Assembly: GCA_030710605.1 (NCBI GenBank)
Contig: CP092879.1
Coordinates: 20,041,582 to 20,105,581, forward strand
Reading direction: 5' to 3'
Length of the DNA: 64,000 nt
From: Cordylochernes scorpioides
Lineage: Eukaryota; Arthropoda; Arachnida; Pseudoscorpiones; Chernetidae
Within the stretch, counting starts at the first letter, position 1; every line of letters begins with the position of its first letter. Shown one piece after another: positions 34,924-37,609 of this stretch. The position numbers were made by a program, and so were the translations under genes. The notes under the pieces are model-generated. The model saw only the letters and a list, made by a program, of their open reading frames with translations, made no database searches and had not been told where the DNA came from.

Positions 34924-35243
34924 TGTTCTACCGCGTTAGGGTAAAGGTTCGAGCTGCAGTCAGAACTATAAATTAATAATTTATATTTTAATAAGTGTCC
35001 AAAAATTACATACAATTATAAGAGGCAGGTGGAGTACAGTTTTTACTCCACCAGCGCCTAGAGTATTATATAATGGAAGGAACCGCCGCAGGTTGTAGCG
35101 ACGCGCGGTAAACAGCCGGCTGACATCAGGCGGTGTTCGAAAAGTGCGCGCGCAGCCCCCGGTGCGCGCGCAGGCCGGCTGGCCAGCTCGCAGAATTCCC
35201 GGTGTCCCATGCCAGCGTCGCCCGCTGGCATCCTCTTATCTCA
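34924..35243 (-). repeat. Gypsy-KH 3' LTR
   Basis: 320 bp. It differs from the copy at 37680 at about four sites in 298 bp. In element orientation its start includes a short perfect palindrome TGCCAGCGGGCGACGCTGGCA. The last 40 codons of the ORF lie in it. Confidence 0.85.
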
Positions 35244-37609
35244 TGCCCCCCCTGGAGATTGGGACTTGGGACCGATCCAACGTAGTTGCTATAACGCGGG
35301 TTCGGTTCTCGGGTTCGAGGGGATAAGGTCTGCTGATGTTGAGCTGAGTTGGGTGGGGTGGTGTACGGTGGAGGCACGAAAGGTCGTAAGAATCTGCGAT
35401 TACGGCGAAGAAGGCGTCCGGCGTCGGTCCGGATGAGGTAGCTGCGACCGCGTGGAAGTTGTTCGAGAACCTCAGCAAGGAGGGTCCAATGTTTTGTGCG
35501 GTGATCCTGGACAAGGACTATTGCTCCCACTTCCAAATGTGAGAGTGGCTTGGCGTTGCGATTGTATCGCTTCCGGAAGGAATGTTCTCTTACATTTTGC
35601 TGTAAGAGGTACTGGGCCATCTGGATCTGCTGGGGCGTGCCAGAGATGGTGATGACCCGTTCGTTGCTACCAGGTTGAGACTCATCTATGGTGATCCCCG
35701 CACCAGACTCGCGCCGGATCTTCCTGATGCGTTGACCACCTTTCCCAATGATGGCACCGGCGAGATCATTTGGTATAGTGACTTGTGATGAGCCTTTTTT
35801 CGGGACGACTACCATAGGATGGCACCAATCGATGGCTTCGCCGACGGGTACCTGTTCGATTATCCCTTTCGCCAACATGGTATCGAGTTGAGTTTTGACG
35901 GGGTCTCTCCAGTGAAAGGGAACGTTGTATGCCCGGTAGCGTTTGCAAGGAACGGCATCTTTAACTAGTTCGATAGACATGGGGGGTCCTTGCATGGGTT
36001 TTAACACTGTGTCGTCGAACGCTCTAGCATAATGGGTAAGGATAGACTGCTTATCGATCTCATTGGCTCTCACCGGGGTCGGCGGGAACGTTAGAACTTG
36101 TCCGTTGGTTATGGCATTGACGATCATTGAATGGGGCCAGTTATCCGGCAGAAGTCCTAAGGCTTTGCATCCGCTCTTGCTCAAGAGAGGGGCGTTCAGG
36201 TGCTTGCAGACTCCAACGGTAGTACTGTATGTTTTCCCGTTGAGATGCAGAGCCGCGACGAACGATCCACAAGGACTTAAGCTGATGCCGTTGGCTCCTA
36301 CGCAAGGGACGTTCTTCGGGTTGAGTGCTGATCGGGTCTGCTCATCCAGTAACAGGAATTCTGATTCTGGGATTAGATCCAGATCTGACCCCGGGTCCGC
36401 CAGCCAACGGATTTGGTGTAACTTATGGTTGATATCGGTCGGAATGGTTATGAGTTCGTTGCGTACTCCAGCTGCAACAACTGTGTTTGAGGGTCCTGGT
36501 TGGGACTGATTGTTTCTGGTTGCGGGTGGCGGGATATTAGGTTTGGTTGTGGGTTTCCGTTTCAGTTGTCGGCAAACCCTTCCGTAATGCCCGGTGATGC
36601 CGCATTTGTTACACTCTATGTCTTTTGCTGGGCACTGGTCACGGCGGTGTCTTGGGTTAGCCCCACATCCGGAGCAGGGGTCGTTAGGATCATAGGGTTT
36701 CTGAAAGAAACGGTTGGCCTTAGGTGAGGTTTCAGACGAGCTGGCTTGTTGATGCTTGTAGGTTGATGGTGCACGTCTGGTTGCAATGAAGGCTTCGGGG
36801 GAGGTGGTTGGGGAGGGTGAAAGAGTCGCGCCCACGGCGGTAGCACTCTCATGTGCGATGCAAATCGAGAGGACTCGGTCCAGGGAGAGGTCGGAATTGT
36901 ACTGCTCCGCCAGTACTTTTCGTTGGAGGTCTTTATCAAACAGGCCACATATTAACCTGTCACGGATACGGAGTTGCTGTTGATAACCAGCAAGGGCAAA
37001 CGTTTTCCCACAAGCTCTTTTTGTGCATCTTGTAATACACGGGTCGCCGCATGTGCTGCACTTAAAATCCAGCTCATGTGCACACGAGTCATCAAGAGAT
37101 TTAAGGGCTGCGAAGTAGCGATCCACCGATTCTCCGGTTTGTTGGTCCCTACGATGAAAATCTTGCCGATCAAGGAGGGGGTTTCGCTTCTTGCGTAGGT
37201 AGGCCTCGAGAGCATTCACGGCTTCATCGAGGGTGGTGGTGGTAGAAATATGAAGGCGGCCTGATTGCCAAAGGATGGTCCATTCGGAATGGAGGGCGGC
37301 ACGCAAAGTCACTTGCTGTGTGGATAGCGGGAAGGTGGCTACTTGTTGGGCGTCCACGTAGTCGTTCCAACGTTGTTTCCAATCGCGGAAAAAAGACATC
37401 GTTAACTCCTCCGGGGAAGCCAGTTTAGGAAGCTGGATGATTTTTGTGGCATGGTGAGGAGGAGCTCCTAATGGGACTGTCGGGGTCGGATTCCGAGTAG
37501 CCATCTGCTGCAACAGTGCGGCTATGGACCTGAGGATGTCGGTGCTGGTCGGCGAGGCAGGGTTCTCTGGAGGGGTTTGGGATGGTCGGCGATTCCTTCT
37601 TGAGGGCAT
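35126..37609 (-). CDS. Gag-protease-KH fusion polyprotein of a Gypsy element
   Basis: 827 codons without interruption. Residues 60-260: Gag capsid-like region with a CX2C...CX4C insertion (183-200). Residues 312-346: zinc knuckles (CSGCGAN... , CNKCGITGHYGRVC). Residues 403-415: LADPGSDLDLIP, the aspartic protease active site with DPG instead of D(S/T)G. Residues 520-607: linker and first part of the reverse transcriptase, ending MVVVPKKGSS. Residues 609-675: a KH domain (VTIPNDLAGAIIGKGGQRIR, GITIDE, ISGTPQQIQMAQYLLQ) very like KH3 of hnRNP K. Residues 676-745: the normal Gypsy Pol C-terminus (VGAIVLVQDH, RNRRFLRPF). The catalytic reverse transcriptase, RNase H and integrase are absent; mobility would need enzymes in trans. 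KH domains of this type bind C-rich RNA or single-stranded DNA. Confidence 0.92.
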   Translation of the reverse strand: MPSRRNRRPSQTPPENPASPTSTDILRSIAALLQQMATRNPTPTVPLGAPPHHATKIIQLPKLASPEELTMSFFRDWKQRWNDYVDAQQVATFPLSTQQVTLRAALHSEWTILWQSGRLHISTTTTLDEAVNALEAYLRKKRNPLLDRQDFHRRDQQTGESVDRYFAALKSLDDSCAHELDFKCSTCGDPCITRCTKRACGKTFALAGYQQQLRIRDRLICGLFDKDLQRKVLAEQYNSDLSLDRVLSICIAHESATAVGATLSPSPTTSPEAFIATRRAPSTYKHQQASSSETSPKANRFFQKPYDPNDPCSGCGANPRHRRDQCPAKDIECNKCGITGHYGRVCRQLKRKPTTKPNIPPPATRNNQSQPGPSNTVVAAGVRNELITIPTDINHKLHQIRWLADPGSDLDLIPESEFLLLDEQTRSALNPKNVPCVGANGISLSPCGSFVAALHLNGKTYSTTVGVCKHLNAPLLSKSGCKALGLLPDNWPHSMIVNAITNGQVLTFPPTPVRANEIDKQSILTHYARAFDDTVLKPMQGPPMSIELVKDAVPCKRYRAYNVPFHWRDPVKTQLDTMLAKGIIEQVPVGEAIDWCHPMVVVPKKGSSQVTIPNDLAGAIIGKGGQRIRKIRRESGAGITIDESQPGSNERVITISGTPQQIQMAQYLLQQNVREHSFRKRYNRNAKPLSHLEVGAIVLVQDHRTKHWTLLAEVLEQLPRGRSYLIRTDAGRLLRRNRRFLRPFVPPPYTTPPNSAQHQQTLSPRTREPNPRYSNYVGSVPSPNLQGGHEIRGCQRATLAWDTGNSASWPAGLRAHRGLRAHFSNTA

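What the first reader, a model, noticed from the sequence alone, without database searches (positions are those of the whole stretch)
35126..37609. Gypsy element that swapped its enzymes for an hnRNP K-type KH domain
Seen: one uninterrupted 827-codon frame carries Gag, zinc knuckles, protease and the start of the reverse transcriptase, then at residue 608/609 goes directly into a complete KH domain with the GKGG loop (35585-35785), then at residue 676 returns to the normal Gypsy Pol C-terminus. Known: KH3 of hnRNP K proteins has this sequence pattern and binds C-rich single strands. Inferred: a host hnRNP K exon was captured in frame, replacing RT, RNase H and integrase, giving a non-autonomous element whose Gag fusion may bind RNA or packaging signals. 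Both junctions in frame and no stop in 827 codons suggest selection or a very recent origin. I know of no described LTR element with this design.
Basis: partly seen in the sequence, partly recalled or inferred. Interest (0 to 1): 0.92.

Follow-up and report, generated by a model that had tools for sequence, protein, structure and literature searches.

The report
Retrotransposon with captured hnRNP-K domain
In a pseudoscorpion genome, a virus-like jumping gene has copied the last RNA-binding domain of the host protein hnRNP K from a spliced messenger RNA into its own coding frame, in place of its enzymes, and the joins now occur at more than 330 places, which catches host-gene theft by a mobile element almost as it happened.

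Summary
The 827-codon frame is Gag, zinc knuckles, protease, start of RT, complete hnRNP K KH3, then Pol C-terminus. The window lies in the pseudoscorpion Cordylochernes scorpioides. The two fusion junctions occur at 337 and 350 places in its 2.6-Gb assembly (reversed-pattern controls 0). Twenty copies that I fetched, chosen for long frames, are ~3-kb elements with near-identical LTR pairs (0-5 mismatches); 18 of 20 show a 5-bp target-site duplication. The host hnRNP K gene is on contig C9. Two GT-AG introns split its KH3; the element carries the spliced form, and 18 of 30 distinct places have no difference from it over the aligned length (up to 216 nt). The 5' junction lies in a 9-nt microhomology, in frame on both sides; the 3' junction has AAG plus a 4-nt TTCC duplication that sets the frame. 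The autonomous RT-bearing parent has at least 141 close matches; KH and parent copies share polymorphisms and appear to recombine. Best reading: template switching onto spliced hnRNP K mRNA made a non-autonomous element that spread on its parent's enzymes. Whether the KH domain helps the element is open.

The parts
35126..37609 (-). 827-codon Gag-Zn-PR-RT stub-KH3-Pol C-terminus ORF
35579..35794 (-). captured hnRNP K KH3 coding segment (216 nt, spliced form of three host exons; first 9 nt GGCTCATCA shared with the parent element); one synonymous difference from the host in this copy
35575..35578 (-). TTCC duplication at the 3' junction that sets the reading frame; the form without it was not found in the genome
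35340..35574 (-). retained Pol C-terminus (integrase GPY/F-like tail; the module name is recalled; limits approximate)
35795..36019 (-). N-terminal stub of reverse transcriptase up to VVVPKK, shared with the autonomous parent (start approximate)
36100..36460 (-). protease region, active-site stretch LADPGSD (DPG instead of DT/SG in the copies looked at); limits approximate, read by eye
36572..36677 (-). two zinc knuckles CX2CX5HX4C and CX2CX4HX4C (read by eye)
   Evidence: sequence
37667..37679 (-). primer binding site TGGCGCAGTCGAC directly after the 5' LTR (tRNA-Ser type, recalled, not tested)
35244..35255 (-). polypurine tract before the 3' LTR
34924..35243 (-). 3' LTR (320 bp, TGAGATAAG...TAGAACA)
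37680..37977 (-). 5' LTR, nt 22-320, 98.7% to the 3' LTR
37978..38255 (-). second tandem LTR piece (nt 42-320, 98.6%)
38252..38503 (+). inverted LTR piece with inverted PBS
38504..38555 (-). LTR start fragment at the outer 5' end
34919..34923 (.). target-site duplication GCCCT, 3' side
38556..38560 (.). target-site duplication GCCCT, 5' side

Best explanation
This is a young, high-copy, non-autonomous Ty3/gypsy retrotransposon made by retroviral-type transduction of a host gene. Shown: it has the Gag-protease stretch, Pol C-terminus, PBS region and related LTRs of an autonomous family still present in the genome, and 724 codons of that family's Pol (RT, RNase H, most of integrase) are replaced by the hnRNP K KH3 coding sequence in its spliced form. 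Inferred: during minus-strand synthesis in a particle holding element RNA and hnRNP K mRNA, RT left the element at AAG (3' junction), copied the mRNA back from near its stop codon, slipped 4 nt on TTCC, and returned to element RNA through a 9-nt in-frame match GGCTCATCA (5' junction). The product keeps LTRs, PBS and polypurine tract, so the parent's enzymes can reverse-transcribe and integrate it in trans. It then spread to more than 330 places while recombining with the parent. Its protein would be Gag-PR-KH-integrase tail, a Gag that carries the host's exact KH3. The most likely reason for its success is that it is a short template with intact signals that encodes its own Gag; help from the KH is possible but not shown.
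For: Junctions: 337 places (5') and 350 (3'), controls 0. Donor gene with two GT-AG introns in KH3, element spliced. Of 30 distinct places (35 locus records), 18 show 0 differences from the host segment, 10 one and 2 two; three of the 18 are over partial length. Parent DNA at both sites (5' in 8 of 8 looked at, of 12 autonomous loci held; 3' in 4 of 4). Chance of a 9-nt or longer match at a random junction 2.5e-5. LTR elements: 20 of 20 fetched; 5-bp duplication 18 of 20; LTR pairs 20 mismatches in 6112 columns (my sums). Autonomous partner: 141 of 150 scored rows at 97% or more over the RT piece, open frames up to 1499 aa. Recombination: 0 fixed differences between 26 fused and 11 autonomous copies, 12 shared polymorphisms, 41 of 66 site pairs fail the four-gamete test.
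Against: No transcript, protein or mobility data are available. The 20 fetched copies were chosen for long frames, so they are not a random sample; of the 150 KH matches scored, only 50 have an open frame of 815 aa or more. Most of the 12 shared polymorphisms are rare in one or both groups, and recurrent mutation or gene conversion between inserted copies could explain part of them. The window's LTR is only 95.4-95.7% like the eight autonomous LTRs looked at (10 gap columns), although LTRs of other KH copies differ from it as much (91.9-98.8%). The 3' microhomology (AAG) is short, chance about 0.05 for 3 nt or more.
Confidence: 0.9

Rival explanations
1. The KH domain is useful to the element: the Gag-PR-KH protein binds C-rich element RNA for packaging or translation, or competes with host hnRNP K where that protein helps silence retroelements.
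For: KH3 is protein-identical to the host's, with the GKGG loop. Internal RNA is 31% C with 30 CCC/kb against 6.9, 9.7 and 22.6 in three other elements of the window. The 3' junction pattern with TTCC has 350 places and the form without it 0. The internal deletions that I could measure are in frame (249, 252 and 306 nt, my arithmetic). N:S over all five regions pooled is below neutral (98:56, p = 0.0006). In mouse ES cells hnRNP K is needed for SETDB1 silencing of endogenous retroviruses (PMC4303303, abstract and passages).
Against: CCC density is what base composition predicts. KH variants 7 N: 4 S do not differ from neutral (p = 0.30); the pooled signal comes mainly from Zn-PR. Broken frames recur too: 298 aa at 3 places and 5, and L035, one of these, aligns along its length with small gaps, so a frame-broken form may also have spread. 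One in-frame founder would explain all junctions.
Confidence: 0.3
2. Small-RNA shield: up to 216 nt identical to a host mRNA makes it costly for the host to aim small RNAs at this part of the element, or drags hnRNP K into silencing.
For: 18 of 30 places have zero differences from the host segment.
Against: The rest of the element stays targetable; no small-RNA data could be reached.
Confidence: 0.1
3. DNA-level capture: a genomic exon of hnRNP K inserted into an integrated element, which then spread.
For: Nothing specific; an insertion into DNA is possible in principle.
Against: The segment joins parts of three exons with both introns (57 nt and 288 nt) precisely gone, and 9-nt microhomology marks the 5' border.
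Confidence: 0.02
4. Assembly chimera or a single odd locus.
For: None found.
Against: 337 and 350 junction places, with distinct flanks and duplications in the fetched copies; six annotated KH proteins of this kind on five contigs.
Confidence: 0.005

Closest known systems
Bs1 of maize (LTR element with segments of three host genes)
   Same: LTR element with host coding segments in it, giving a chimeric gene (passages of PMC5408686 and PMC13317346)
   Different: Here an animal Ty3/gypsy element, one segment, a whole nucleic-acid-binding domain, hundreds of young junction matches, and donor and parent both at hand
LTR-mediated retroposition in metazoans (Tan et al. 2016)
   Same: Template switching between LTR-element RNA and mRNA at micro-similarities (as told in passages of PMC5408686; the paper itself is not held)
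   Different: Those are described as retrocopies; here the chimera became a multiplying element family
Acute transforming retroviruses with gag-onc fusions (recalled)
   Same: Host mRNA segment replaces pol, Gag fusion protein, helper-dependent spread
   Different: Ty3/gypsy, spread in the germ line, RNA-binding domain rather than an oncogene
Autonomous parent family (K02A2.6-like, P0012/P0013)
   Same: PBS, Gag-PR and Pol tail; 0 fixed differences over 1101 nt
   Different: Parent has RT, RNase H and integrase in place of KH; LTR about 328 bp, 95.4-95.7% to the window's LTR

Membership tests
Ty3/gypsy (Metaviridae) LTR retrotransposon | paired LTRs with TG...CA ends, PBS and PPT | tested here: met
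   LTR pairs in 20 of 20 fetched copies (5' LTR only partly aligned in L010 and L015); PBS and PPT read in the window copy
Ty3/gypsy (Metaviridae) LTR retrotransposon | short target-site duplication | tested here: met
   5 bp in 18 of 20; window GCCCT
Ty3/gypsy (Metaviridae) LTR retrotransposon | RT, RNase H and integrase encoded, integrase last | tested here: not met
   absent from the KH element; the autonomous parent P0012 carries the Pfam labels (PF00078, PF17919, PF17917, PF17921, PF00665; their meaning is recalled), domain order not tested. So: a non-autonomous derivative, not a full member
Ty3/gypsy (Metaviridae) LTR retrotransposon | PBS complementary to a host tRNA | not tested
   tRNA-Ser assignment is recalled
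Transduced host-gene element (Bs1 / gag-onc type) | host segment lacks introns that the donor gene has | tested here: met
   exon borders inferred from alignment with GT...AG, no transcript
Transduced host-gene element (Bs1 / gag-onc type) | host segment inside the LTRs and moved with the element | tested here: met
Transduced host-gene element (Bs1 / gag-onc type) | fusion protein is made | not testable with these tools
   no transcripts or proteomics
hnRNP K KH3 | KH_1 match with GKGG loop, closest to hnRNP K | tested here: met
   identical protein in the host gene

The most novel reading that the evidence does not exclude
A Ty3/gypsy element that stole a host RNA-binding domain gained by it: Gag-KH3 binds C-rich element RNA, or blocks hnRNP K-dependent silencing, and this drove the KH form to a copy number that may exceed that of its autonomous parent (about 340 junctions against at least 141 close RT matches, counted by different methods).
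Probability: 0.27. Interest if true: 0.9.

Novelty: new variant of a known kind. Interest (0 to 1): 0.76.

Why it matters
Host-gene capture by retroelements is usually inferred from old remains (general knowledge). Here donor gene, parent element, both junctions and hundreds of descendants sit in one genome with almost no divergence, so the steps of capture, frame setting, helper dependence and recombination can be read and tested. It also poses a direct question: does a host RNA-binding domain help a retrotransposon spread?

Tried and rejected
Rejected: assembly chimera, DNA-level exon capture, foreign hnRNP K (best non-host match listed 85%, scorpion; the host's own is identical in protein). 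C-rich self-RNA as evidence for KH binding: CCC counts of the element match composition shuffles, so not counted as support. N:S over KH: too few variants. The joined flanks of the window insertion match paralogous repeats only 8 nt past the join, so the empty-site test is weak; the duplication carries the case. One search did not list P0011, which carries the KH and fits the length range, so absence from that search means little. One search showed no protein named as C. scorpioides hnRNP K among the 120 listed of 1400. The like-for-like count of the parent junction (pattern AAAAAAGGCTCATCAGAACCGCGCG) was asked many times and never answered; the parent number rests, a lower bound. A tree of the shared region has too little signal to order events. 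Not pursued: structure prediction, tRNA identity of the PBS.

Full report
What is there. The minus strand at 35126-37609 holds one open frame of 827 codons. Pfam finds KH_1 at residues 609-671, and among solved structures the best four matches are named hnRNP K (that the chains are KH3 is recalled). Pfam finds no Gag, protease or RT family in it at E up to 1. The rest is recognised through relatives: of the 14 proteins that match residues 1-600, 11 are named Cordylochernes scorpioides; they match at 88-100% over 10-100% of the query, and 6 of the 11 carry the KH label. One of the others, P0012, matches up to the KH and again after it, with 724 codons between that bear RT, RNase H and integrase labels.

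Which genome. One does not (96,169,140 for P0001 and P0006 against C11 96,166,042). So the window's assembly is that of the pseudoscorpion C. scorpioides (taxid 51811) or a version of it: 2,619,359,433 bases in 24 contigs. The window is C17:20041582-20105581.

Element anatomy. The 3' LTR is 34924-35243. Directly after the 5' LTR lies TGGCGCAGTCGAC (PBS), and a G-run precedes the 3' LTR. The insertion is bounded by GCCCT on both sides. The joined flanks match paralogous repeats, but only 8 nt past the join (84% and 82%), so that test is weak. The window copy's 5' side carries an extra inverted and a tandem LTR piece.

Copy number and mobility. The 3' junction occurs at 350 places and the 5' junction at 337, each with up to 2 mismatches; the reversed patterns give 0. 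I fetched 20 copies, picked for long frames. All 20 have the order LTR-Gag-PR-RT stub-KH-tail-LTR, 2942-3079 nt as aligned. LTR pairs differ at 0-5 positions: 8 of 20 have none, and my sum is 20 in 6112 columns, 0.33%. A matching 5-bp duplication was found in 18 of 20; in the other two the 5' LTR was only partly aligned. Different duplications at different places mean separate integrations. Among the 150 KH matches scored (of 499 candidates; not each checked for junctions), 50 have an open frame of 815 aa or more and 95 of 690 or more.

Donor. The host hnRNP K gene lies at C9 about 99,229,920-99,232,600 (KH2 pieces and KH3). From the alignment, with GT...AG borders, KH3 is coded by three exons: GGCTCATCACAAG...GAT, a 57-nt intron, a 170-nt exon, a 288-nt intron, then TGTAAGAGAACATTCC... 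to the stop; the joined reading ends like scorpion hnRNP K (QQNVREHSGRKF against QQSVREHSGRKF). No transcript was seen. The element has the three joined without introns. The window copy differs from the spliced host segment at 1 of 216 positions, without changing the protein. Of 30 distinct places (35 records, 5 repeated), 18 differ at none, 10 at one and 2 at two; three of the 18 cover only part of the segment, and two of those lack the 5' junction.

Junctions. Parent DNA reads CCGAAAAAA-GGCTCATCA-GAACCGCGCG (8 of 8 looked at, of 12 autonomous loci held), host GACAAGCAG-GGCTCATCA-CAAGTCACT, fusion CCGAAAAAA-GGCTCATCA-CAAGTCACT: nine shared bases, read as Gly-Ser-Ser in both. A match of 9 or more at a random junction has chance 2.5e-5 (5 of 200,000 draws). 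At the other end the parent reads GCCCTC-AAG-CGATAC (4 of 4), host ACATTCC-GGAAG-GAAGTT, fusion ACATTCC-TTCC-GGAAG-CGATAC. Without the TTCC the tail would be out of frame. The form without it, with up to 2 mismatches, has 0 places in the genome, so either the founder had it or no copy of the other form spread.

Partner and recombination. The RT piece of P0012 gives 141 of 150 scored rows at 97% identity or more, some over part of the piece, with open frames up to 1499 aa (a lower bound, 150 of 39839 candidates scored). Over 1101 nt of shared Zn-PR-RT sequence, 26 fused copies and 11 autonomous copies (of the 12 loci held L049 was dropped for short overlap; of the later KH records only L036 was added) have mean distances of 0.83% (fused-fused), 0.74% (autonomous-autonomous) and 0.81% (between), no fixed difference, and 12 sites with the same two bases in both groups (71 variable in fused only, 19 in autonomous only). 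Three of the 12 are at middle frequency in both groups; most others are rare. Of the 66 pairs of those sites, 41 show all four combinations. The simplest reading is that both RNAs meet in the same particles and recombine, which also supports mobilisation in trans; gene conversion and some recurrent mutation are weaker alternatives.

Constraint. Pairwise pN/pS among 25 copies is 0.88 (Gag), 0.33 (Zn-PR), 0.38 (RT stub), 0.68 (KH) and 0.78 (tail). By variant counts Zn-PR departs from neutral (32 N: 24 S, p = 0.002), the five regions pooled do too (98: 56, p = 0.0006), and Gag, RT stub, KH (7: 4, p = 0.30) and tail alone do not (no correction for transition bias). Frames shortened by internal deletion have spread: L008 and L032 share a deletion of 249 nt with 14 nt of overlap at the join (my arithmetic), and copies at C6:74944840 and C1:79839136 are 84 and 102 codons shorter between ATG and KH (my arithmetic), with open frames of 737 and 719 aa that fit an unbroken reading. 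All are multiples of three. Against this, a broken frame of 298 aa recurs at 3 places and 5. So a need for the frame is suggested, not proved. The protease motif is DPG rather than DT/SG (the usual form is recalled) in 20 of 20 fused and 12 of 12 autonomous copies looked at, one of the 12 being frameshifted right after.

Mechanism. Shown: spliced source, two joins with microhomology, LTR copies with duplications, an autonomous partner, mixing of sequence. Inferred: co-packaging of hnRNP K mRNA, order of the switches, supply of RT and integrase in trans, translation of the fusion. That hnRNP K KH3 binds C-rich single strands is recalled. Links between hnRNP K and retroelements exist in mammals: it is needed for SETDB1 silencing of endogenous retroviruses in mouse ES cells (PMC4303303, abstract and passages), and a paper on cap-independent translation of retroviral mRNAs appeared in a listing (PMC10954487, listing only). 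They make a KH function plausible; nothing here tests it.

Literature. Eight searches were made in an open-licence library. In the titles and abstract openings listed (several lists were capped, for example 20 of 1854) I saw no LTR element with a KH or hnRNP K domain and no study of C. scorpioides retrotransposons. Most subscription papers are not held, so this is not proof of absence. Known relatives in kind are Bs1 and LTR-mediated retroposition (passages of PMC5408686 and PMC13317346).

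Noticed in passing
window 26146-32832: 23 tRNA-Thr genes (21 GGT, two AGT) at about 289-bp spacing in two head-to-head arrays (8 on -, 15 on +); most repeat units are 95-100% alike, some edge units 74-83%.
   Followed up: no
window 38252-38555: Rearranged 5' LTR side with an inverted LTR plus PBS and a tandem LTR, inside an insertion with a 5-bp duplication; might be a product of self-integration before insertion.
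   Followed up: partly
proteins P0007, P0008: Two annotated proteins of the same family share a join PVRA/ECSAYLP that removes RT and RNase H but keeps integrase: possibly a second kind of internal deletion derivative (gene models, DNA not looked at).
   Followed up: no
window 35584-35600 (-): Joining the host exons creates AAT-GTAAGA at the end of the KH; annotated gene models P0001, P0002 and P0004 leave the element there, so it may act as a splice donor that fuses Gag-KH to downstream exons.
   Followed up: no
L034 (C24), L037 (C14): KH copies with an intact 3' junction but an unrelated 5' flank starting inside the KH segment: truncated or recombined copies.
   Followed up: no
window 10830-14890, 16815-17276, 39938-40831, 45964-50273, 55515-59629, 62646-63164: Reading by eye: copia-type, Penelope-type GIY-YIG, Tc1/mariner-type, Bel/Pao-type and another gypsy-type element, and a second GIY-YIG frame.
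   Followed up: no
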